Below, in pieces: positions 2,570 to 41,009 of a stretch of 45,209 nt of DNA. The notes under the pieces were generated by a model. That model was not told where the DNA came from. It saw nothing but the letters and a program-made list of their open reading frames with translations, and did no database searches. The translations under genes and the position numbers were made by a program. The stretch lies in assembly GCA_937143345.1 (NCBI GenBank), contig CAKZRD010000005.1:1-45209 (forward strand), in the 5' to 3' direction. The stretch comes from an uncultured archaeon (GTDB taxonomy: Archaea; Nanobdellota; Nanobdellia; Pacearchaeales; GW2011-AR1). The stretch's first letter is position 1. Each line of letters opens with the position of its first letter.

Positions 2570-2601
2570 TTTATTAATCCTTTTTTTCTTCTATTTTTAT
2601 G
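2570..2601 (+). promoter_or_regulatory. Pilin-like cluster promoter copy 1 (TTTATTAATCCTTTTTTTCTTCTATTTTTATG)
   Basis: Near-identical to copies at 3514 and 5828; TTTATTAA starts 29 nt before ATG in all three. Confidence 0.7.
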
Positions 2602-2766
2602 AAAAAAAGAGCATTTTCACTCCCGCAGGATTTTATGGGGTGGTTTTTCCTTGGAATAGGTTTTTTGATTTTTATCCTCATAATTATTTTTATTTTGAAA
2701 GAAAAAATGTGGAACGCGATTGACTATTTCAAATCATTTTTAAGATTTAGAGGAAGCACGGGATGA
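2599..2766 (+). CDS. Small single-pass membrane, pilin-like protein, 55 aa (MKKRAFSLPQDFMGWFFLGIGFLIFILIIIFILKEKMWNAIDYFKSFLRFRGSTG)
   Basis: Below the ORF-track length cutoff; ATGA overlap with next gene; promoter at -29. Confidence 0.8.
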   Translation: MKKRAFSLPQDFMGWFFLGIGFLIFILIIIFILKEKMWNAIDYFKSFLRFRGSTG

Positions 2767-3362
2767 AAAAGAAAAAATCTGTATTAGAAAGCGAAACAAT
2801 AATAATTTTCGCAGTTGTTTTTATGGTCGTTCTCTTGGTCTTATTTTTTGTTTTTAGAACAAGAATCGATTTGTGGATAAAAAATCTTCCGGACTATCAA
2901 CAAAAAGAAGGTGGTGATGTAGAAATTTTACCTGATGAAGTAACTATTTCCCTATGCCCCGAAGGGTATGAGATTATTGGTAGATTTGAAACCGGTGTTA
3001 GAACCCCTAATTTTATTATAAAAGATGAAAACAATTTTAAAACTACAAAAATAGAATGGGTTTTAGGAAATAATAAAATTATTATAGACAAATGGGGACC
3101 ATTCATAGAAATAAATCTTGGAGAGATCACTCCATTTAAACCACATAGTAAAAAAATTCATATAGACAAAAAAGTTTTTCAAAGAGGAAATGATAAGTTT
3201 AATGCAGTTTTAAAAAAAGAATTAATCGAAGGAGAAGAATTTTTTAAATATCTAATTTTGCTTGATAACGCAGAAGTTCTCGGTCTTGGAGGAACAAATT
3301 ACATTTGTCAAAAAAAAGAAATTATAGAAAACCTTACTAAAAAATTGAATTTAATATACTGA
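2763..3362 (+). CDS. Pilin-like/single-pass membrane protein with extracytoplasmic domain
   Basis: MKKKKSVLESETIIIFAVVFMVVLLVLFFVF N-terminal helix; translationally coupled (ATGA). Confidence 0.7.
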   Translation: MKKKKSVLESETIIIFAVVFMVVLLVLFFVFRTRIDLWIKNLPDYQQKEGGDVEILPDEVTISLCPEGYEIIGRFETGVRTPNFIIKDENNFKTTKIEWVLGNNKIIIDKWGPFIEINLGEITPFKPHSKKIHIDKKVFQRGNDKFNAVLKKELIEGEEFFKYLILLDNAEVLGLGGTNYICQKKEIIENLTKKLNLIY

Positions 3363-3513
3363 GGTGTTGAAAATCCCGATATAGAACAAGAACTTATTAA
3401 GTTACAAACACTACATTAAAAAGAAACAGAATACCTACAAAGGTTATTTCCTCAATTTTAGAAAAACAAAATTAGCAAAAATCTTTTTTATTTATTTTTC
3501 TATTATACTAAAC

Positions 3514-3545
3514 TTTATTAATCCTTTTTTCTTCTAAATAAAATG
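3514..3545 (+). promoter_or_regulatory. Pilin-like cluster promoter copy 2 (TTTATTAATCCTTTTTTCTTCTAAATAAAATG)
   Basis: Shared block, -29 spacing. Confidence 0.7.
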
Positions 3546-4577
3546 AAGAGTAAAAAGGGGCTTTGGTTCGGTGAAGAAACAGGAAAGATTGTTCTTGCTG
3601 TTATCGGAATTGTTTTAATGATTTTTCTCCTTGTTAAAATTATAGGTATCTTAATTCAAAAAACAAAATACGAACAAGCAAAAGCTGCGATGAGTGAGAT
3701 TGAAATGGTCACAAGCTCATTAAAAGAAAAAGAAATCGGTTATGTTTTTATTGAAGGCCCGAAGAATTGGGTCTTGAAGAGATATTCACCTTATGAAGAT
3801 AAACAAAAAATACCAAGTTCTTGTGGAAATAAAGAATGTCTTTGTTTATGCCCCCCAATTAATTTTTCATGGTGGGATAGAATTACTTTAATAGATTTTA
3901 GAGATTTTAAAGAAATAAATGATGAAATAATAAAAAATTGTCAAAATAAAGGAGTTTGTAAAAATTTAAATTTGCCTTTAATAATCACTACAAAATGTTA
4001 TCTTAATTTACCTCACTGCAGAGAATTAGACAAAATACCTTTAATGTTCACTATGCAAAAAAATAAGGGCGGAATTATCATTTCAAGTCACGAAAGTTTC
4101 GACGCAACAAAGTTCTTTAGTATGATTATAAGCAATAAAACAAAATTTGAAATTTTAAAGAATTGGTCTTTAGGAAGAGAGTTTTTTAATGATAGAAAAA
4201 TAGAGGGGATGTTGGAAGAGACCGTAAAAGAGTATGAAAAAGCTCATAATATAGAATTAGAAAAATGGTACGTTATAATTGGAAAAATAAAAAGCGATGG
4301 AAGTGTTGATTATTCTCGTTGGGGGACTGATTTAACTATAACAGAGTGGGGATGTATAAAAGATATAAGAACAGTTATTGGTATGCATTTTCCTGCTCTT
4401 CTTATGACTGACTTCTTTGTCAAAGTATCTGAAGGAATTGAAGAAAGATTTAAAAGCCCATCAAAAAGATGCCTTGGTGGAGATTGGTTCAGCATGATTT
4501 TTTATTTAGAAGAAGGAAATAATAGACAAGACCTCTTATTTGAAATAAGATTAGATTCAAAAAATGAAAAAAAATAA
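3543..4577 (+). CDS. Pilin-like membrane-anchored protein with Cys cluster (CGNKECLCLCPP)
   Basis: MKSKKGLWFGEETGKIVLAVIGIVLMIFLLVKI class III-like N-terminus followed by large soluble domain. Confidence 0.7.
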   Translation: MKSKKGLWFGEETGKIVLAVIGIVLMIFLLVKIIGILIQKTKYEQAKAAMSEIEMVTSSLKEKEIGYVFIEGPKNWVLKRYSPYEDKQKIPSSCGNKECLCLCPPINFSWWDRITLIDFRDFKEINDEIIKNCQNKGVCKNLNLPLIITTKCYLNLPHCRELDKIPLMFTMQKNKGGIIISSHESFDATKFFSMIISNKTKFEILKNWSLGREFFNDRKIEGMLEETVKEYEKAHNIELEKWYVIIGKIKSDGSVDYSRWGTDLTITEWGCIKDIRTVIGMHFPALLMTDFFVKVSEGIEERFKSPSKRCLGGDWFSMIFYLEEGNNRQDLLFEIRLDSKNEKK

Positions 4578-4692
4578 AAGAGCACAAACAAACTATGAAG
4601 AAGTAGGAAAGTACATACTTTGGTTTATACTAACAATTATTTTAAGTATTGGTTTATACTACCTAATAAATTATTTAACAAGTAAAATATGA
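4564..4692 (+). CDS. Small pilin-like membrane protein, 42 aa (MKKNKRAQTNYEEVGKYILWFILTIILSIGLYYLINYLTSKI)
   Basis: Not in ORF track; start overlaps end of upstream CDS, stop overlaps next ATG (ATGA). Confidence 0.8.
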   Translation: MKKNKRAQTNYEEVGKYILWFILTIILSIGLYYLINYLTSKI

Positions 4693-5720
4693 GAAAAGAA
4701 AAAGGCGAAATAAGTGTAGGAATGATTATAGCGATCATAATCGTAATTGTTTCGTTGGTTATCTTAGCTCTTACATATTATCAAATGGTAAAAGAAAACG
4801 ACCTTGATAGACAAACTTGTCAAACAAGTGCAATGATGAGGGGAACAATACCTGACAGCATTCCAGAATCACAAATAAAAGATTTAGTTCAATTAAAATG
4901 TAAAACGAAAAAAATCTGTGTAACAACAAATGTCATACAAAAAGGCGAATGCCAGGAAGAATTCGGAAGCTTGGAAGGAAAATATTCAACTTATAGGATA
5001 AGTAATAATAAAGAAAAAGCAGAAAAACAAATAAAGACTCTTCTTGCAAGAGAAATGGCTGACTGTTGGGACATGCTTGGAAGAGGAGCTTATCAAATTT
5101 TTAAAAGAGAATTGACAGCAAAAAATGCTTTTGCTTCTTATGGAGTTATATGTTCTCGTATAAAATTTGACAAAACAGTGACTGATGAAAAAAATGGTCC
5201 ACAAATTAAAGAGCTGACTAGATTCAATGAATATCTCTTAAGATACAAACACCCTAATATGAATGTCTCTTATTGGGATTTTTTAAGAAACTCTTATGAC
5301 GGAGAAACAATGAACATTCTTTTTGGTCAGAGCATTTCTGGAAGCCAGACTTCTTCTAATAAAAACCAAAATAATCTTGAAGAATTTTTCAATGTAAAAG
5401 TTAATTTAACAAAAACCCAAGCGATAATGTATGTTGAAGCAAGCCCCACTGCTATCGGTCCGCTTATAGGTGCTTCTGTTGGTGGACTGATTGGTACTAT
5501 CGTCGGAGCTAATGCCGGAAGTCATCTATTTAATGGTTTTTTTATAGGCGGTTCTGTTGGATGGGGGGCAGGAGATTTTGTTCAAATGAAAATGTTAAAT
5601 TGGGATGGGCTATTTCCAGAAGGTTCTTATGCTGCTTCAATTTTTTTGATTGATTACACAATGGAAAGTTTTGAAAAATTCAACCGAAAAGCAAATTTCC
5701 AAATAGCAAGTATTAGTTGA
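4689..5720 (+). CDS. Pilin-like membrane-anchored protein with glycine-rich C-terminal segment
   Basis: MRKEKGEISVGMIIAIIIVIVSLVILALTYY N-terminus; MADCWDMLGRG...YGVICSRIKFD; IGASVGGLIGTIVGANAGSHLFNGFFIGGSVGWGAGD. Confidence 0.7.
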   Translation: MRKEKGEISVGMIIAIIIVIVSLVILALTYYQMVKENDLDRQTCQTSAMMRGTIPDSIPESQIKDLVQLKCKTKKICVTTNVIQKGECQEEFGSLEGKYSTYRISNNKEKAEKQIKTLLAREMADCWDMLGRGAYQIFKRELTAKNAFASYGVICSRIKFDKTVTDEKNGPQIKELTRFNEYLLRYKHPNMNVSYWDFLRNSYDGETMNILFGQSISGSQTSSNKNQNNLEEFFNVKVNLTKTQAIMYVEASPTAIGPLIGASVGGLIGTIVGANAGSHLFNGFFIGGSVGWGAGDFVQMKMLNWDGLFPEGSYAASIFLIDYTMESFEKFNRKANFQIASIS

Positions 5721-5827
5721 TCTTATTTAAATGAAATCTTTTAATTTATGTTTACGAAAAAGGAAAATTAGATAAATAAAAACATATCTAAAAAATACAA
5801 GTATCAAAAAGATATAAATACACTAAA

Positions 5828-5859
5828 TTTATTAATCCTTTTTTCTTCTAAATGAAATG
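5828..5859 (+). promoter_or_regulatory. Pilin-like cluster promoter copy 3 (TTTATTAATCCTTTTTTCTTCTAAATGAAATG)
   Basis: Shared block, -29 spacing. Confidence 0.7.
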
Positions 5860-6297
5860 AAAGATAAAAAAGCCAATATGATCTATCCTATTGTTTTGTT
5901 CATCATACTTAATATAATTTTTATGTCTCTGATGCTTATTTTTATACAAAGATCTTCTTCAGAAGCATTTAGATACGAAGAACTTTATGCAAAAAAAATT
6001 GGTTTAATGTTAAATAGAGTGGAATCTGAATCTTATTTAGAGATAAATGTAACCGATTTAATAAAAAATTCCGAAAAAAATATAAAAAACGAAGATTTTC
6101 TTGAATTTGTTCAAAAAGAAATGATAAAAATAGATACAGAAAGAAGTTTAGTTGAAATAAAAACAAAAAAAGAAGGAGGATTTTCTTATCCTTTTTTCTC
6201 AAAAATAGAAATAGACAGAAATTTAACAAAAATAAATTTAGAATTAAATAAAGAAAACAGAATAATCGGAGGAAAGATTATAATATGGATAAAATAA
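5857..6297 (+). CDS. Pilin-like small membrane protein
   Basis: MKDKKANMIYPIVLFIILNIIFMSLMLIFI; overlaps next CDS. Confidence 0.7.
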   Translation: MKDKKANMIYPIVLFIILNIIFMSLMLIFIQRSSSEAFRYEELYAKKIGLMLNRVESESYLEINVTDLIKNSEKNIKNEDFLEFVQKEMIKIDTERSLVEIKTKKEGGFSYPFFSKIEIDRNLTKINLELNKENRIIGGKIIIWIK

Positions 6298-6815
6298 ACA
6301 AAAGAGCAGACGAAAAACTCTTTTCTATATGGTGGTTTGTTTCTTTAACATTAGTAGGTGTTACTGTAACTGTAGTTGTACTGAATTATTTTAGTTCGTC
6401 TATAGATGTAAGAGCTAAAGAAGTTTCTATGTTAGAACAAAAGATTCTTGATTGTATAATAAAAAAAGGATATTTGAAAAAAGAAGTTCTTTCTTGGAAA
6501 AACGAAGAAATATTCGACAAATGTGGGTTAAATAAAGAAAGTTTTAAAGAAGAAACAAACACAAAAATTTTTTTTAATCTAAAACTAAAAAATGAAAAGG
6601 GGGAAGAAATAAAAGTCTTTAGATTTGGTGAAGTTTCATATGAAGAAGAATGTTTAATAAAACAAAAAGGTTCCTATTTTCCTGCATGTTCAAAAACAAA
6701 AAGTTTCATTAATTTGATCAACGATGAAAACAAAAAAGAAACTATCATCATAGATCTTCTTGTCGCTTCGCAAAATCATGGAACTAAAAAAGGATTCACT
6801 AAACTTAAAACATGA
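6285..6815 (+). CDS. Pilin-like membrane protein
   Basis: MDKINKRADEKLFSIWWFVSLTLVGVTVTVVVLNYF; overlaps both neighbours. Confidence 0.7.
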   Translation: MDKINKRADEKLFSIWWFVSLTLVGVTVTVVVLNYFSSSIDVRAKEVSMLEQKILDCIIKKGYLKKEVLSWKNEEIFDKCGLNKESFKEETNTKIFFNLKLKNEKGEEIKVFRFGEVSYEEECLIKQKGSYFPACSKTKSFINLINDENKKETIIIDLLVASQNHGTKKGFTKLKT

Positions 6816-7351
6816 AAAAAGCACAAATCTCAAATACTCTTTCATGGTTTATAGCGACAATAGTAATCTTTTTTATATTGATTATTTTTGTTTTTTTTGC
6901 TTCATTAAAAAACATTAGCAACAAAGGAAAAAACATAGGAGTGACTGTAGAAATAGTGGGCACAGACATCTTTCTTCAACAAGAACAACAAAGAGCCATT
7001 TACTCTTTTTTTGAAAAAGATGAAGAAAATAAAAAAATTTATTTTTTAGTAAAAGATTTTGTAAATAATGTTGGAAATTCAAAAGAACCTTACTTAAAAG
7101 AAGAACATTTACTAAAAAATATTTGTGGTTCTTTTTTTATTATTGGAAGAGATGTTTTTTGGACAACGGATGGTCTTTCTGGTTATTCTGAAGGAAAGAT
7201 TAATTATTATTTAAAATATCCGCAGGAAAAAACTATTGAAAGAAAAGAAGGCATGTTAGCAACATATGAAGACCCTTATTATGGATATAGCTTTTATTTT
7301 TATAATAAACCTTCTATTTTAATTAAGTATTCTACTGAAATATGTAAATGA
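6812..7351 (+). CDS. Pilin-like membrane protein
   Basis: MKKAQISNTLSWFIATIVIFFILIIFVFFA; ATGA-type overlap. Confidence 0.7.
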   Translation: MKKAQISNTLSWFIATIVIFFILIIFVFFASLKNISNKGKNIGVTVEIVGTDIFLQQEQQRAIYSFFEKDEENKKIYFLVKDFVNNVGNSKEPYLKEEHLLKNICGSFFIIGRDVFWTTDGLSGYSEGKINYYLKYPQEKTIERKEGMLATYEDPYYGYSFYFYNKPSILIKYSTEICK

Positions 7352-7899
7352 TGAAAAAAAAATATATTGCCGAAATTTCGCTAAACAATGGCGGAAAAGT
7401 ACTAATTAGCGAATGGGTTGTTGGAATTGGTAGAATTGCTATTTTTGAAAATATATTGATTACTGAAGATCAAAAATTATTTTTTAAAAAAAAGAGTTTT
7501 TCAAAAGATAACAACTTATACTTATCATATATAGAAAAAGAAAATTTTGTAATGATAAATAAAAAAGACCCACAAACAAACTACTACTCTTTTATGCCTG
7601 TCGTAGCGATATATCCTGATGGCTCTTTATGGATATCTCCGAGAATAAATGCCAACTTAGTAAATGAAAAAGAAGTAATAATTGATGCAGACGGATATAG
7701 TAAAGATAGGCTTCTTTCCCCTTATGAATCTTTTTGGTGGAATAAAAACCAAGAAGAAACAGAAAATATAAAATTTGTAAAATATATTTTACAAAATCCT
7801 AATAGTGGGGAAGTAACTTTTTTCGCAAGAAAACTATACAAAACCTATAAAAAAATAAACTATGAAGAATTAAAAAAATATTTAAAAGATGGAAAATAA
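7348..7899 (+). CDS. Hypothetical soluble protein in pilin-like operon
   Basis: No clear N-terminal hydrophobic helix; overlaps 6812 and 7889 genes. Confidence 0.65.
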   Translation: MMKKKYIAEISLNNGGKVLISEWVVGIGRIAIFENILITEDQKLFFKKKSFSKDNNLYLSYIEKENFVMINKKDPQTNYYSFMPVVAIYPDGSLWISPRINANLVNEKEVIIDADGYSKDRLLSPYESFWWNKNQEETENIKFVKYILQNPNSGEVTFFARKLYKTYKKINYEELKKYLKDGK

Positions 7900-8665
7900 A
7901 AGAGCAAATCTGGACATAACAATCTTTATTATAATGGTTTTTATTATTTGTATTTATGCACTAGCCAACATAACTGCATATAAAAATAAACTAGAATTAA
8001 AATTAACAAGTTATACACAAGTAGAAAAAATTCAATTAGAAAAAAAAGATTTAGAATATTCTTTAAAGAAATATTTGGAAGAATGCTTAATAGAAAGTTA
8101 TTTTGAGATTATAGAAAAAAAAGAATTTTATGAAGGACAAGATATAGGAGGAATATTTTTTTTAAACAAAATAAAAGAAGATGCTAATGAAAATTTAATA
8201 AATAAAACAAAAAAATGCATAAAAGAAAAAGCAAAAAAAGATTATGATATCTATATAACACAAATTATTAGAGAATTACAAAAAGAAAAATTTTTAGAAA
8301 AATTAAAGAAAGAAAAGTTTGAACTAAATAATGAAGAAGAGATTTCGCTAAAAATAGAAGAAATTGATTTCTCAAAAGAAGAAGTAAAATACAGGAAAGA
8401 ATTAAAAACAAAATTTGTTTTTAGAGAAGAAAGACTTTTAAATTGGAATGATATAAACAAAACACTATTTTGTGAAAATGAAGAGTGTATTAAAAATTTA
8501 ACGAAAAACTTATTTTTCTTGGATATCGAAGAAAAAACAGAAAGTAGAAATAATAAAAATATTACATACAAAATTTACAACTTTATTTCTTTAAAAGAAT
8601 TTTATTTAAATGGAGAATTCAAAAAAATCTCTTTTGAAATAAAAAAATTAGAAAAAATTGAATAA
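7889..8665 (+). CDS. Pilin-like membrane-anchored protein with long charged domain
   Basis: MENKRANLDITIFIIMVFIICIYALANITAYKNK. Confidence 0.68.
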   Translation: MENKRANLDITIFIIMVFIICIYALANITAYKNKLELKLTSYTQVEKIQLEKKDLEYSLKKYLEECLIESYFEIIEKKEFYEGQDIGGIFFLNKIKEDANENLINKTKKCIKEKAKKDYDIYITQIIRELQKEKFLEKLKKEKFELNNEEEISLKIEEIDFSKEEVKYRKELKTKFVFREERLLNWNDINKTLFCENEECIKNLTKNLFFLDIEEKTESRNNKNITYKIYNFISLKEFYLNGEFKKISFEIKKLEKIE

Positions 8666-8668
8666 AAA

Positions 8669-9703
8669 CTAATTAAAAAAATCTTTCAAAGAAACTTGTT
8701 TTTTTTCTTCTTCTATTTCTCTTAATTTTTCTAATGCCTTATCTACTCTTTCCTCTGAAAAATCTCTTTCTAATAAGATTTTCTTAACTTTTTCAAAATC
8801 TGGTTTAATTTTGTCAATTTTTTTTATTCCGTTGCCTTTATATTCTTTAAATTCCTTAAAAATTTCTTGCCAGTTGAAATCCATCACGTATTTTCCGCTT
8901 TTGTATATGTAATCAAAGATTATGGTAGGATATCTGAATTTTCTTACTATTTCTAAAGCTCTTTTTTGACCTAATCCTTTAACTCCACCAATATTAAAAT
9001 CTGTCCCTGTGAGTATTCCTAAACTAATTAATTGATCTCTATCGATCTGTAAACTCTCTAAAACTTGCTGTAATTCAATAAACTCTATATTAACATCTAC
9101 TAAAATTCCCGAAGATGTTTTTCTTTTTCTCGCAAGAGTCAGATTTCTTATTAAACGAGGGGTGCCATAAAGAAGAGCATCATAATCTTGAGAAGCAGAT
9201 GCCCAAACTAATCCTGCTCTTGCTAAAAAAGAAGCTTCTGCCTCGCCTTCATTTAAGGATTCAACAAAAGAAATTCCTAACGCTTTTAAGATTTCTTTGC
9301 TTTCGTTGACAATCTCTTCATTTATTTTAACAAATTGTTTAGAATATTTGTTCATGCTTTCTATGTCCCCAGATTTTTTTGCATCAGTGTATTTCTCCAT
9401 AGCAATTCTTTTTCTTTCTGCTCTTTCATTGAGTTCTTTTTCTTTTAGATGAGAGGGTTTTCCATCGAAAACATAAACTAAATTTATTCCTTCACTCAAT
9501 AAAGAGATATTTCTATAAAAAAGACCTGACAAGTGGGAAGTTATTTTTCCCTTAGAATCCATCAAAGGAGTTCCATCTTGTTGCCTAATAGTTGTCAAAA
9601 ATTGATATAAAGTATTCATAGCGTCTACTGCAATTGTTTTTCCTTTTAAAAGAGAAAGATTTATTTCCTTTCTTGGGATTATTTCAGCAATTTGCACTCC
9701 CAT
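8669..9703 (-). CDS. fen: Flap endonuclease 1
   Basis: XPG N and I motifs (AVDAMNTLYQFL...VYVFDGKPSHLK...EGEAEASFLARAG); C-terminal PIP box QVSLKDFF. Confidence 0.97.
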   Translation of the reverse strand: MGVQIAEIIPRKEINLSLLKGKTIAVDAMNTLYQFLTTIRQQDGTPLMDSKGKITSHLSGLFYRNISLLSEGINLVYVFDGKPSHLKEKELNERAERKRIAMEKYTDAKKSGDIESMNKYSKQFVKINEEIVNESKEILKALGISFVESLNEGEAEASFLARAGLVWASASQDYDALLYGTPRLIRNLTLARKRKTSSGILVDVNIEFIELQQVLESLQIDRDQLISLGILTGTDFNIGGVKGLGQKRALEIVRKFRYPTIIFDYIYKSGKYVMDFNWQEIFKEFKEYKGNGIKKIDKIKPDFEKVKKILLERDFSEERVDKALEKLREIEEEKKQVSLKDFFN

Positions 9704-9777: not shown

Positions 9778-12111
9778 ATGGATAAAGGGTTTATTGTTTA
9801 TTCAGATTATGAAACAAGAGAAAACAAAACATTTGTTCAAATCTATGGAAGATTAAAAAATGGACAAAGTTTTGCAATAGAAAAACTATTTACTCCTTAT
9901 TTTTTTATAAAAAAAGAAGATGAAAAAAAATTATTTAGAGAATCAAAAGTTAAAATAGAAAAATGCGAAGAAAAAACATTTGATGAAAAAGAAACTTTGA
10001 AATTAATTTTTGAAAATTATGAAGAACAAAAAAATTTCTTAAAGAAAATAGATGAATTGAAAATAGAAACTTTTGAAGCAGACTTAAAACCAAACACAAG
10101 ATTCTTAATAGATAATGATTTTTTTGGAAAAATCGAAATAGAAGGAGATTATAAAACAGAAAATGAAAAAGTTGAAAGATTCTATTTTGAACCTGAAATA
10201 AAAAAAGATTTGTCTGACGAAAAAATTTATCTTAAAATTCTTTCCTTAGATATTGAAACATCTACAAAAGGAGAAATCTATTGTGTTAGTCTATACTCAA
10301 AAAATTATAGAAAAAGTCTTATTCTTTCAAAAGAAGAAATAAAAAATGCGAACAATTTTTCAACAGAAGAAAAACTCTTAGAGGAACTAAAAAAAGAAAT
10401 AATTTCATTTGATCCCGATATAATTGTAGGTTGGAATTTAATTGACTTTGATCTTCTCTATTTAAAAGAAGCATATAAAAGAAATAAAATACTATTTGAT
10501 TTTGGAAGGAAAAAAGGAGAAGTAAAATTAAAAATAGAAAAAAACTTTTTTAGAAACTCTAGTGCAAATATTGTTGGAAGAATTGTTTTAGATGGACTAA
10601 ACTTGATTAAAGATCCTTTTATTCAAGAATCTCCTTCAATAAAATCAATTAAAACAAACTCTTATTCTTTAGAAGATGTCTCTCAAGCTTTTCTTGGAAA
10701 AGGAAAGATAATCTCTAAAAAAGACAGACATAAAGAAATAGAAGAACTTTATAAAATAAATAAAGAAAAACTTGTCGAATATAACCTAAATGATTGCTTA
10801 CTCGTTTATGAAATTTTAGAAAAAACAAAAATGATTGATTTAGCTATAGAAAGAAGCGAACTAACAGGATTGCAATTAAACAAGCTTTTGGGTTCTATTG
10901 CTGCCTTTGATTCTTTATATATAAGAGAAGCAAGAAAAAGAAAACTTGTCTCTCCGACGACAAAAGTTAGAAACAAAGAAAAAAGAATAAAAGGCGGTTA
11001 TGTTATAACTCCAAGACCGGGAGTTTACAAAAATGTTTTGACATTCGATTTTAAATCACTTTATCCTTCAATAATAAAAACCTTTAATATAGACCCTGCA
11101 AGCTTTCTCCATAAAAAAGAAAAAAATGCAATTGTTTCTCCAAATGGTGCTTATTTTAGAAATAATGAAGGAATTCTTCCAGAAATATTGGGAAAGTTAC
11201 ACGAAGCTAGAGAAAAAGCCAAAAGAGAGAAAAGAGAGCTCTCGAACTATGCAATAAAAATAATAATGAACACTTTCTTCGGAGTTTTAGCAAGCCCAAA
11301 CTGCAGATATTTTGATTTACAAATAGCTAACGCAATAACTCATTTTGGACAAGAAATAATAAAGATGACTTCAAAAATTATCGAAGAAAAAAATTTTGAA
11401 GTTATTTATGGAGATACGGATAGTGTTTTTGTAAATACAAAACTAGAAAAAGAAGAAGCAAAAAAACTAACAAACATTCTTTCAAAAGAAATTAATTCTT
11501 TTTATAAAAATTATGTTAAAGAAAGATTTAATCGAAATTCTTATCTAGAACTTGAGTTTGACACTTTCTATGACTTTTTAATAATTCCAAAAATGAGAGC
11601 AGAAGAGGAAAAAAGAGGTGCAAAAAAAAGATATGCTGGTATAGTTACAAAAGAAGGGAAAGAAAAACTTGAAATCGTCGGACTTGAAGCAATACGGGGT
11701 GACTGGACAGAAGCCGCAAAAAACTTTCAAAAAGAACTTTTACTAAAAATTTTTAAAAATGAAGAAGTTATCTCTTTTATAAAAGATTATATAAAAAATC
11801 TTAAAGAAAGAAAACTAGATAAAGAACTTATTTATAAAAAATCTATAAGAAAAGATCTTGAAAATTATACTAAAACAACACCGCCACATGTTAAAGCAGC
11901 CCGCCAACTTGATGATTTAGATAATAACTTAATAGAGTATTATATAACAACAGAAGGCCCAGAACCAATTCAAAAATTAAAGCACAAAATTGATTATGAA
12001 CATTATATAGAAAAACAAATAAAACCTATCGCTAAAACAATTTTAGAAACTGCCGGAATTGATTTTGAAAAAGCATTTAATGAAGAAAAACAGAAGAAAT
12101 TGCTTATTTAA
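9778..12111 (+). CDS. polB: Family B DNA polymerase with intact 3'-5' exonuclease motifs
   Basis: LDIETS, GWNLIDFD, YNLND; DFKSLYPSI, YGDTDS; TATA-like 29 nt upstream. Confidence 0.97.
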   Translation: MDKGFIVYSDYETRENKTFVQIYGRLKNGQSFAIEKLFTPYFFIKKEDEKKLFRESKVKIEKCEEKTFDEKETLKLIFENYEEQKNFLKKIDELKIETFEADLKPNTRFLIDNDFFGKIEIEGDYKTENEKVERFYFEPEIKKDLSDEKIYLKILSLDIETSTKGEIYCVSLYSKNYRKSLILSKEEIKNANNFSTEEKLLEELKKEIISFDPDIIVGWNLIDFDLLYLKEAYKRNKILFDFGRKKGEVKLKIEKNFFRNSSANIVGRIVLDGLNLIKDPFIQESPSIKSIKTNSYSLEDVSQAFLGKGKIISKKDRHKEIEELYKINKEKLVEYNLNDCLLVYEILEKTKMIDLAIERSELTGLQLNKLLGSIAAFDSLYIREARKRKLVSPTTKVRNKEKRIKGGYVITPRPGVYKNVLTFDFKSLYPSIIKTFNIDPASFLHKKEKNAIVSPNGAYFRNNEGILPEILGKLHEAREKAKREKRELSNYAIKIIMNTFFGVLASPNCRYFDLQIANAITHFGQEIIKMTSKIIEEKNFEVIYGDTDSVFVNTKLEKEEAKKLTNILSKEINSFYKNYVKERFNRNSYLELEFDTFYDFLIIPKMRAEEEKRGAKKRYAGIVTKEGKEKLEIVGLEAIRGDWTEAAKNFQKELLLKIFKNEEVISFIKDYIKNLKERKLDKELIYKKSIRKDLENYTKTTPPHVKAARQLDDLDNNLIEYYITTEGPEPIQKLKHKIDYEHYIEKQIKPIAKTILETAGIDFEKAFNEEKQKKLLI

Positions 12112-38583: not shown

Positions 38584-39915
38584 ATGTTTAAGATATTAAC
38601 AACAAAAGTTTTTGGTCTGACGAAAAGAGTGTTAAGAAGAGATTTTTCTGGGAATACCGGGATTGCAATAAAGAATTCAATTTTTCAATTTTTGACTAAT
38701 GCTATTGGAAAAGTTGGAAGCCTTATTTTTACAGTATTTCTTGCCAGAATTTTACTTCCAGAGATTTTTGGTCTTTACTCTTTAGCGCTTTCAACAATCT
38801 TAATTTTTGCAGCTTTTACTGATTTGGGTACGAACAGCGCATTAATAAAATTTCTTTCTAAGAATGAGAAAAACCAGAGAAAAGCAGGTGCCTTTATCTA
38901 CTTTATAAGAAATTTAAAATTAAAATTAACTGTTTTATCTTCTTTAATCTTGATTTTATCTTCTTATTTTATTGCTAACTTTTATTACAAAAAACCGATT
39001 TTTTTAGCTTTGTTGGCAGGTTCTTTATATATTTTATTTAATAGCATTTTAGGTTTTGTTGTGGGTTTATTTCAAGCGAGAAACAATTTTAAATATCCTT
39101 TCTATAAAGAAATTTTCTATCAAATAACAAGGTTGGTTTTAGTTCCAATAACAATCCTTTTTGTTTTAGATTCTTCGAAGGAAATTCTTCTAGGAGGAAT
39201 TTTTTTATCTCTTTCTCTTTGCTTCTTCTTTTCTATATTTTTTCTTTATCCAAAAATAAAAAAATACCCTTCCGATAAATTATCAGAAAAAGAAAAGAAA
39301 GAAGTAATAAAGTTTATTATTCCATTAAGTGCAACAGCTTTAACAGGACTTTTTTTTGGAACAATAGATATTATAATGCTTGGAAGATTTGTCCATTCTT
39401 CTTATTTGGCTTATTATCAGGCGGCTTTCGCTTTAATCGGTTCAGTCAGTGTTTTAATTCCCTTTGCTGCAGCTTTTTTTCCAGTTTTTTCAAGATTGTC
39501 TGAAGAAAAGCTTAAATTAGTATTAAAAAAATCATTAGCAGTAACATTTATTTTTTCTTTTTTTGCTATTATTTTTACTTTGTTTCTTTCAGATATAGTG
39601 GTTAAGGCAATATACGGAGTTGAGTATTTACCGACTTCAAAAATATTAAGAATTCTTTCAATTCTTCTTCTGGTTGATTCATTCAATGCAGTATTTTCAA
39701 ACTTTTTTATTTCACAATCAAAAAACAAATTTTTGTCAAAAACTTTAATTTTAGCGACATTTTTAAACATTTTATTGAACTTTATTTTAATTAAATATTT
39801 TTTACAATTTTCTATGTTTCATGCAACAATAGGCGCAGCTATTGCGACAATTTTAAGCAGAATTTTTATTTTGGGTATTTTTTTTATAAAAAATTATAAA
39901 GAAAAAAGAAAATAA
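38584..39915 (+). CDS. Oligosaccharide flippase (Wzx/MATE-like polysaccharide exporter)
   Basis: 12+ TM; AIKNSIFQFLTNAIGKVGSLIFTVFLARILLPEIFGLYSLALSTILIFAAFTDLGTNSALIKFLS. Confidence 0.92.
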   Translation: MFKILTTKVFGLTKRVLRRDFSGNTGIAIKNSIFQFLTNAIGKVGSLIFTVFLARILLPEIFGLYSLALSTILIFAAFTDLGTNSALIKFLSKNEKNQRKAGAFIYFIRNLKLKLTVLSSLILILSSYFIANFYYKKPIFLALLAGSLYILFNSILGFVVGLFQARNNFKYPFYKEIFYQITRLVLVPITILFVLDSSKEILLGGIFLSLSLCFFFSIFFLYPKIKKYPSDKLSEKEKKEVIKFIIPLSATALTGLFFGTIDIIMLGRFVHSSYLAYYQAAFALIGSVSVLIPFAAAFFPVFSRLSEEKLKLVLKKSLAVTFIFSFFAIIFTLFLSDIVVKAIYGVEYLPTSKILRILSILLLVDSFNAVFSNFFISQSKNKFLSKTLILATFLNILLNFILIKYFLQFSMFHATIGAAIATILSRIFILGIFFIKNYKEKRK

Positions 39916-40401
39916 AAGAAGAGCAAAAATAAAAAATAAAATTTCATTTTTATTTTCCAAACTTTTTTCTTTTATGTCTTTTATTACATTTTCTGTTAAA
40001 ACGATTATTTCTTCATCGAGTTCAATTTTTCTTACTTCTAATTCAACCCAACTCCCTATTTCTACAATGTTCGCATCAGAATAAAAAAAGATAATCCCAG
40101 AAAAATTTCCACCTTTTTTAGGATTAAAACAAAATTCATATTTTCCTTTTTCTAAATAAGTGTAATTAAAAGATATTTTTATTTTCTCAGAGCTTAATTT
40201 ATATTTTTCTATATCACCCTTGCCGTCGATTGACCATCTCGAGCTTATAGAATAATTTTCTTCTGGTAAAACCCAAATATTTACACATTTTGTTTCATAT
40301 TGGTCCATTTTAATTTTTTGGTAGGTCGGAGAAATTTTTATAGAAGAAGAAAAGTTTATTAAAAACAATAACGATAAAAAAAGAATTAATAATTTTTTCA
40401 T
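39853..40401 (-). CDS. Secreted/C-terminally membrane-anchored beta-domain protein
   Basis: N-terminal signal peptide and C-terminal TM helix; converges on and overlaps flippase 3' end by 63 nt. Confidence 0.7.
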   Translation of the reverse strand: MKKLLILFLSLLFLINFSSSIKISPTYQKIKMDQYETKCVNIWVLPEENYSISSRWSIDGKGDIEKYKLSSEKIKISFNYTYLEKGKYEFCFNPKKGGNFSGIIFFYSDANIVEIGSWVELEVRKIELDEEIIVLTENVIKDIKEKSLENKNEILFFIFALLLFSFFFIIFYKKNTQNKNSA

Positions 40402-40403
40402 TT

Positions 40404-41009
40404 TTAAGGAGAACCAGAATTAACACTAGACCAGTCGGGAACGATAATAAATTTAATACTATTCCTATAATTTTCTATTGTAAAAGGGATTGGGTCTTCA
40501 TATTCGGATAAATCCAACAAAATAGATTGTTCTCCGTTGCTATTAGTAGCATTTTCTAGCCCGGACGAAGTTAAAACACTCCAATATCCTTCATTTTTTG
40601 TAAGATTAAATTTCATTTTATAAAAGCCAATTTTTGTCCATTTGCTTTTCGAACTTTCAAAAATTCTAGCAAAGTATAAATTAGAGAAAATATTATCATT
40701 CGAATTTACTAGCGTTGGAATTATGTCTACATCAACATTTCCTCTTGCTTTTATCTTATATTTTGCCCTATAGCTATTCCAATTTTTTTTAGGTTGAACA
40801 TTTCCAAAATTAATTTCCGAAGTGTTTAATTGAACTTCTGCCCACCATTTTGTTGCAGATATATTTGCGATAACATCAAACTCCGCACTTGTATTTTTTA
40901 TTGTTGTTGTTTCATTACCAATAAAAGTTCCGTTATAGCTAGATGATGAAAAACTTATCCCAAATATGAAAAATCCAAAAAACAAGATGAGCACGAACTT
41001 TTCCCCCAT
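40404..41009 (-). CDS. Secreted beta-rich protein with many N-glycosylation sequons
   Basis: Signal peptide MGEKFVLILFFGFFIFGISFSSSS; numerous NxS/T; TTTAAAAAC 29 nt upstream. Confidence 0.7.
   Translation of the reverse strand: MGEKFVLILFFGFFIFGISFSSSSYNGTFIGNETTTIKNTSAEFDVIANISATKWWAEVQLNTSEINFGNVQPKKNWNSYRAKYKIKARGNVDVDIIPTLVNSNDNIFSNLYFARIFESSKSKWTKIGFYKMKFNLTKNEGYWSVLTSSGLENATNSNGEQSILLDLSEYEDPIPFTIENYRNSIKFIIVPDWSSVNSGSP

What the first reader, a model, noticed from the sequence alone, without database searches (positions are those of the whole stretch)
2599..8665. Ten-gene cluster dominated by pilin-like proteins: candidate undescribed archaeal surface or pseudopilus system
Seen: ten consecutive same-strand genes, mostly overlapping by 4-17 nt. 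Nine begin with a short basic stretch, then [AGS], then a single hydrophobic helix (KKRA-FSLPQDFMGWFF, KKKS-VLESETIIIFA, SKKG-LWFGEETGKIVLAV, NKRA-QTNYEEVGKYILW, KEKG-EISVGMIIAII, DKKA-NMIYPIVLFII, NKRA-DEKLFSIWWFV, KKA-QISNTLSWFIA, NKRA-NLDITIFIIM), followed by dissimilar ectodomains of 10-310 aa. Knowledge: archaeal type IV pilins/archaellins carry class III signal peptides cut by FlaK/PibD/EppA before a hydrophobic helix. Inference: these are subunits of one secreted filament or envelope complex. No PilB/TadC-type ATPase or platform gene is present here, so the motor would have to be encoded elsewhere.
Basis: partly seen in the sequence, partly recalled or inferred. Interest (0 to 1): 0.78.

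Follow-up and report, generated by a model that had tools for sequence, protein, structure and literature searches.

The report
Split type IV pilus operon, Pacearchaeota
These ten genes are the minor-subunit set of a type IV pilus machine that nearly all genomes of this group of tiny archaea carry as one cluster; here the set has moved away from its motor genes, and in related species some of its subunits carry enzymes that cut bacterial cell walls.

Summary
In detail: ten collinear genes (2599-8665), nine starting with a class-III-signal-like N-terminus; a simple detector hits 8 of 10 here and none of the other ~45 window genes. No Pfam/NCBIfam family covers them. Relatives explain them. A p5 profile hits 167/180 genomes of the order (named records: Candidatus Pacearchaeota). 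In 81 loci the genes form one conserved series: PilB-type ATPase - TadC-like platform - p1-p2-p3-p4-p5-p6-p7-p8-p10 - major pilin - A24 prepilin peptidase (55/58 p5 loci with enough flank have the platform; 61 order inversions in 2597 pairs). In the window's genome the ATPase, platform and peptidase lie together on contig C17, with 274 bp where the pilin block should be; a major-pilin relative is on C12; the block itself is in the window, in three units sharing a promoter-like element unique in the genome. So: a dispersed archaeal type IV pilus operon, a new variant of a known kind. p9 is not pilin-like and nearly an orphan. Unexpected: in relatives, p3 and p2 ectodomains carry varied murein hydrolases (SLT, GH73, M15, 3D, phage lysozyme), suggesting a pilus that breaches bacterial walls. 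The window's own p3/p2 show no such domain.

The parts
2571..2594 (+). Promoter-like element TTTATTAATCCTTTTTTTCTTCTA before the p1 start (leaderless-type spacing); variant with one extra T
2599..2766 (+). p1: 55 aa, KKRA|FSLPQDF..., very short pilin-like protein; 76 proteins assigned to its family
2763..3362 (+). p2: 199 aa pilin-like protein with ectodomain; relatives up to 684 aa, some with SLT or Phage_lysozyme2 domains
3514..3539 (+). promoter-like element TTTATTAATCCTTTTTTCTTCTAAAT before p3
   Evidence: only two matches (<=3 substitutions) in the 554-kb genome
3543..4577 (+). p3: 344 aa pilin-like protein; conserved N-terminal helix and CLCxC domain, variable C-terminal domain (murein hydrolase in several relatives, unidentified here)
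4564..4692 (+). p4: 42 aa mini pilin-like protein (KRA|QTNYEEVGKYILW)
4689..5720 (+). p5: 343 aa, most conserved member (invariant Cys); profile hits 167/180 genomes of the order and 107/146 of the class
5828..5853 (+). promoter-like element TTTATTAATCCTTTTTTCTTCTAAAT before p6
5857..6297 (+). p6: 146 aa minor pilin-like protein
6285..6815 (+). p7: 176 aa minor pilin-like protein, conserved Cys
6812..7351 (+). p8: 179 aa minor pilin-like protein (KKA|QISNTLSWFIA)
7348..7899 (+). p9: 183 aa, no prepilin-like N-terminus; matches in only 2 of 112 family genomes (one is itself); weak resemblance to the C-terminal part of long p2 proteins
7889..8665 (+). p10: 258 aa pilin-like protein (ENKRA|NLDITIFIIM)

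Best explanation
The cluster encodes the minor-pilin set (p1-p8, p10) of the lineage's core type IV pilus machine. Each precursor is inserted with its basic N-terminus inside; the A24 peptidase on contig C17 trims it before the hydrophobic helix; the TadC-like platform and PilB-type ATPase on C17 pull subunits out of the membrane into a filament whose bulk is the major pilin (relative on C12). The small conserved members (p1, p4, p6, p7, p8) would prime or cap the filament, while p2, p3 and p5, with large, mostly lineage-variable ectodomains, would sit at the tip as the contact end that binds a partner cell. In this genome the block has been moved away from the motor operon and is probably transcribed from three near-identical promoters. 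Shown: gene content, order conservation, ATPase and peptidase family membership, separation in this genome, promoter-like repeats. Inferred: cleavage, co-assembly, tip position, cell contact.
For: Nine prepilin-like N-termini. p5 in 167/180 genomes of the order, 20/20 of the better ones. Family HMMs on 81 loci give the canonical series ATPase-TadC-p1-p2-p3-p4-p5-p6-p7-p8-p10-major pilin-PibD; 55 of 58 p5 loci with enough upstream sequence have the platform, 48 of 58 the ATPase, 46 of 55 with enough downstream sequence the peptidase, and 61 of 2597 gene pairs are out of order. Own genome: T2SSE ATPase (Pfam 1.2e-13) and Peptidase_A24 (4.9e-07) with the platform orthologue between them on C17; that ATPase family is in 266/279 genomes of the phylum and nearest in the PDB to archaeal GspE, CpaF and FlaI. 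Major-pilin relative on C12, E 2.8e-7. Promoter element found only twice in the genome, both here, plus a third variant.
Against: No structure match: Foldseek against PDB gives nothing significant for p3 or p5, and p3's C-terminal half is modelled at low confidence. The platform protein is only marginally similar to T2SSF (4 of 19 members, best 0.0017; the own copy does not reach it). No prepilin-cleavage predictor was available. p9 is unexplained. The genome is a 31-contig assembly, 89.7% complete, so contig placement rests on binning.
Confidence: 0.85

Rival explanations
1. The machine is a wall-breaching contact device rather than an adhesion or motility pilus: p3/p2 carry peptidoglycan hydrolases to the filament tip so that the archaeon can bind and perforate bacterial envelopes. 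(A special case of the best explanation, rival on function.)
For: In ten p3-position proteins from other families of the order, seven have a murein-hydrolase domain above Pfam's cut-off, of four unrelated kinds: SLT (8e-22, 2e-22, 2e-19), Glucosaminidase GH73 (6e-22, 3e-13), Peptidase_M15 (1.8e-9), 3D (2e-7). p2-position: Phage_lysozyme2 1.2e-26, SLT 1.4e-12. In class-level relatives: Amidase_2 5e-30, SLT 5e-26. A control of 56 flanking proteins shows no murein hydrolase among the 25 most frequent families, one GH3 apart.
Against: The window's own p2, p3, p5 and p10 have no such domain, nor do most p3 proteins of its own family, many of which are only ~160 aa; no Foldseek match to a lysozyme fold. 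No enzyme activity shown. Archaeal murein hydrolases are also known free of pili.
Confidence: 0.3
2. A pseudopilus used for protein secretion (type II secretion-like), not a surface filament.
For: Many dissimilar minor pilins around one ATPase and platform resemble a pseudopilus set; the major pilin is not in the block here.
Against: A conserved major-pilin gene, often duplicated, closes the cluster in most relatives (84 proteins assigned) and a relative is found on C12.
Confidence: 0.12
3. Unrelated signal-anchored envelope proteins that merely share N-in signal anchors.
For: Ectodomains are dissimilar and match no Pfam/NCBIfam family.
Against: Order conservation with a pilus ATPase and a prepilin peptidase across the order.
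Confidence: 0.03

Closest known systems
Archaeal type IV pili (VirB11/GspE-family ATPase + TadC/FlaJ + multiple minor pilins + PibD), census of Makarova, Koonin and Albers 2016 (PMC4858521)
   Same: ATPase, platform, A24 peptidase, five or more class-III-signal minor pilins in one locus, occasional stand-alone major pilins; conserved cysteines are reported there for some systems.
   Different: The text of that census does not mention DPANN, Woesearchaeota or Pacearchaeota; the p1-p10 families here match no Pfam/NCBIfam model; the platform is a ~720-aa protein barely recognised by T2SSF; murein hydrolase ectodomains in relatives.
Epd / Tad pili (Denise et al. 2019, PMC6668835)
   Same: CpaF-like ATPase, short major pilin; Tad is thought to derive from archaeal systems.
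   Different: One platform gene instead of a TadB/TadC pair; 8-9 minor pilin-like proteins in a fixed order; TadZ not tested.
Kil Tad-like prey-killing apparatus of Myxococcus xanthus (PMC8460266)
   Same: Works-like comparison only: a type IV filament-like machine at cell contacts used to kill bacteria.
   Different: Bacterial, different components; no homology claimed. Applies only to relatives with hydrolase ectodomains.
Host-binding type IV pili of Saccharibacteria (PMC12206443)
   Same: Ultrasmall, host-dependent organism using type IV pili to bind its host.
   Different: Bacterial T4P; tested genetically, unlike here.
Large extracellular murein lytic transglycosylases of Pacearchaeota/Woesearchaeota (PMC8204110; PMC9723730) and archaeal peptidoglycan hydrolases (PMC12352652)
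   Same: Murein hydrolases in the same lineages, proposed to act on bacteria.
   Different: The passages read do not link them to pili; a search for 'pilin' in the main text of each gave no occurrence. The link to the pilus operon appears new, within the papers searched.

Membership tests
Archaeal type IV pilus | Several proteins with class-III-signal-like N-termini (basic stretch, small residue, hydrophobic helix) | tested here: met
   9 of 10 by eye, 8 of 10 by rule, none elsewhere in the window
Archaeal type IV pilus | Cleavage of that signal by a PibD/FlaK/EppA-type peptidase | not testable with these tools
   peptidase gene present but no cleavage predictor or experiment
Archaeal type IV pilus | GspE/PilB-family assembly ATPase in the genome, linked to the pilins in relatives | tested here: met
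   C17 T2SSE hit; 48/58 linked loci; PDB neighbours GspE, CpaF, FlaI
Archaeal type IV pilus | TadC/FlaJ-type platform protein | tested here: inconclusive
   constant neighbour of the ATPase and pilins, 55/58 loci, but T2SSF only 4/19 members, best E 0.0017; profile comparison with the genome's TadB/C-like pair weak
Archaeal type IV pilus | A24 prepilin peptidase | tested here: met
   C17, Pfam PF01478 4.9e-07, above cut-off; in 46/55 relative loci with enough downstream sequence
Archaeal type IV pilus | Major pilin | tested here: met
   conserved family in relatives, relative on C12 E 2.8e-7; by homology only
Archaeal type IV pilus | Pilin fold (long N-terminal helix plus beta domain) | tested here: inconclusive
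   p3 model: confident helix 8-38 and mixed beta domain to about residue 183, but no significant PDB match; p5 likewise no match
Archaeal type IV pilus | Visible filament on cells | not testable with these tools
   uncultured organism, sequence only
Tad/Epd pilus | Platform as two genes (TadB + TadC) | tested here: not met
   single ~720-aa platform protein next to the ATPase
Pilus-borne murein hydrolase variant (proposed) | Hydrolase domain in p2 or p3 | tested here: not met
   met in several relatives but not for the window's own proteins

The most novel reading that the evidence does not exclude
Across these ultrasmall archaea the core type IV pilus is an interdomain attack or docking device: its tip subunits p3/p2 are interchangeable cartridges, in many lineages bacterial-wall hydrolases of unrelated folds, and in the window's lineage an unidentified ectodomain with an equivalent role against another kind of partner.
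Probability: 0.25. Interest if true: 0.85.

Novelty: new variant of a known kind. Interest (0 to 1): 0.55.

Why it matters
It turns ten 'hypothetical' genes into the minor-pilin set of a machine that almost every genome of this large uncultured group keeps, despite extreme genome reduction; that points to an important role, plausibly in finding or holding a host. The hydrolase domains on p3/p2 of relatives suggest that some of the hosts or prey are bacteria, an open question for Pacearchaeota and Woesearchaeota, and give concrete proteins to test.

Tried and rejected
Pfam and NCBIfam on the ten proteins gave only sub-threshold matches. PDB sequence profile of p5: none. Foldseek of p3 and p5 models: none significant, so a lysozyme-like fold for the window's p3 C-terminus is not supported. 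First run of the family-HMM script timed out; rerun with faster alignment. p9 as a fragment of a long p2: only E 0.04, kept as a lead. The C25 ATPase (500 aa, pilin-like gene next to it) was considered as the motor; rejected because the C17 ATPase is the orthologue of the one adjoining the cluster in relatives. A chance run of signal anchors was rejected on synteny.
Full report
OBSERVATION. The ten ORFs are exactly where stated. Seven junctions overlap by 4-14 nt; 180-nt and 136-nt gaps before p3 and p6 divide the series into three units. Nine of ten begin with a basic stretch, [AGS] and one hydrophobic helix. A simple rule for that pattern hits eight of the ten and no other called gene in the window; p10 fails only on net charge, p9 truly lacks it. 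The flanks are housekeeping genes by sequence (a FEN1-like gene at 8669-9703 and a family-B DNA polymerase at 9778-12111; identification from general knowledge). Pfam and NCBIfam recognise none of the ten.

WHAT IT IS. A search with p3 alone found relatives in 22 of 36 genomes. Stretches around these and around p5 hits in more genomes were fetched, genes were called by script, and family profiles were built from the window's proteins. The profiles assign 76 p1, 80 p3, 81 p5, 76 p6, 74 p7, 64 p8, 63 p10, 42 p4, 33 p2 (plus 31 short p2-position proteins), 84 major-pilin-like, 57 ATPase, 68 platform and 58 peptidase proteins in the relative loci and own-genome stretches; p9 is found only in the window. 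The series ATPase - TadC-like platform - p1-p2-p3-p4-p5-p6-p7-p8-p10 - major pilin - prepilin peptidase recurs throughout, with local rearrangements such as p5 before p3 in some. Where the locus extends far enough, 55 of 58 have the platform, 48 of 58 the ATPase and 46 of 55 the peptidase, and only 61 of 2597 ordered gene pairs are inverted. Because the profiles were seeded with window proteins and hand-picked relatives and then widened, very short members (p1, p4) may be partly cross-assigned; p3, p5, p6 and p7 do not depend on this.

TAXONOMIC REACH. A p5 profile matches 167 of 180 genomes of the order, all 20 of the better ones, and 107 of 146 in the class. The ATPase profile matches 266 of 279 genomes in the phylum at E <= 1e-80.

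THE MOTOR IN THIS GENOME. T2SSE hits are on C17 and C25. C17 carries, on one strand, the ATPase (L047:8961-11207), the platform (6727-8916) and the peptidase (5637-6452). Between platform and peptidase, where relatives have several kb of pilins, there are only 274 bp without a pilin ORF. A relative of the major pilin is on C12, away from the other parts. The parsimonious reading is that the pilin block was moved (or the operon split) in this lineage; the pilin block lacks a nearby platform gene in 3 of 58 relatives too. Assembly or binning error cannot be excluded. The three units in the window share a promoter-like element, TTTATTAATCCTTTTTTCTTCTAAAT, whose only matches in the genome (up to three substitutions) are before p3 and p6; the p1 copy has one extra T, and a looser resemblance precedes the platform gene. 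This fits co-regulation but is not evidence of it by itself.

MECHANISM. By established knowledge of archaeal type IV pili, the peptidase trims the precursors, and ATPase and platform assemble them. Makarova et al. (PMC4858521) report at least five such minor pilins in most loci of one group and stand-alone major pilin genes, so neither feature is unprecedented. Here p5 is the most conserved member (invariant cysteines); p3 has a conserved N-terminal helix and CLCxC domain and a variable C-terminus. Structure prediction gave p3 a confident helix and beta-containing domain to about residue 183 and a poorly modelled C-terminus, and p5 a mean pLDDT of 77; neither matches a solved structure. Placing p2, p3 and p5 at the tip is inference from their size and variability.

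THE UNEXPECTED PART. In relatives the variable ends are often murein hydrolases. Of ten p3-position proteins from other families of the order, seven have such a domain above Pfam's cut-off: SLT in L037, L044, L140; GH73 glucosaminidase in L088, L128; peptidase M15 in L126; 3D in L134; L031 and L043 have weak hits and L040 none. p2-position proteins: Phage_lysozyme2 in L026 and SLT in L132. A scan of further p2/p10-position and neighbouring proteins also gave Amidase_2 and Peptidase_M23 once each (carriers not identified). A scan of large pilin-like and neighbouring proteins in class-level relatives gave Amidase_2 (5e-30) and SLT (5e-26), once each. The 25 commonest families in 56 flanking proteins contain none of these, apart from one GH3 domain; 34 rarer families were not listed. 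Archaea lack murein, so bacterial walls are the natural target. Earlier papers reported large extracellular murein transglycosylases in these lineages and proposed bacterial partners (PMC8204110; PMC9723730) and peptidoglycan hydrolases in about 5% of archaeal genomes, prominent in Nanoarchaeota (PMC12352652); a search for 'pilin' in the main text of each found no occurrence. Contact killing by a Tad-like machine (PMC8460266) and host binding by T4P in Saccharibacteria (PMC12206443) are working parallels, not homologues. The window's own p2, p3 and p5 have no recognisable hydrolase domain, so this is a property of the system's relatives, not shown for this organism.

VERDICT. A genuine, conserved archaeal type IV pilus minor-pilin cluster, split from its motor in this genome: a new variant of a known kind. 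The most surprising part lies in the relatives.

Noticed in passing
L037:9228-10268, L044:9004-10080, L140:8118-9227 (SLT); L088:7688-8716, L128:11897-12925 (GH73); L126:9934-10848 (M15); L134:7803-9047 (3D); L026:13200-15251 and L132:7434-8192 (p2 position): Murein-hydrolase domains of several unrelated kinds fused behind pilin-like N-termini in the pilus operon of related archaea.
   Followed up: partly
G000:C25 (L001/L046: ATPase 500 aa, pilin-like 176 aa) and G000:C19:17658-18735 (L049: TadB/TadC-like pair plus pilin-like genes): A second, apparently separate type IV pilus system in the same small genome.
   Followed up: no
window 3514-3539 and 5828-5853, variant at about 2571: A 26-nt promoter-like element present exactly twice in the genome, both inside this cluster, with a third variant before p1 and a looser one before the platform gene on C17.
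   Followed up: partly
window 7348-7899: p9: near-orphan gene inside the cluster; weak IYPDGSxW similarity to the C-terminal part of long p2 proteins.
   Followed up: partly
L034:8362-9654: p10-position protein of 431 aa whose C-terminus looks C39-peptidase-like by eye (CGPRALHQAF...HYAVFD); Pfam gives nothing.
   Followed up: no
L194:17156-19351: p3 orthologue of 732 aa with a large unrecognised ectodomain.
   Followed up: no
window 40404-41009 and 39853-40401: Two adjacent minus-strand genes for proteins that look by eye like ordinary signal-peptide surface proteins (one with a C-terminal anchor), possibly a surface protein pair.
   Followed up: no
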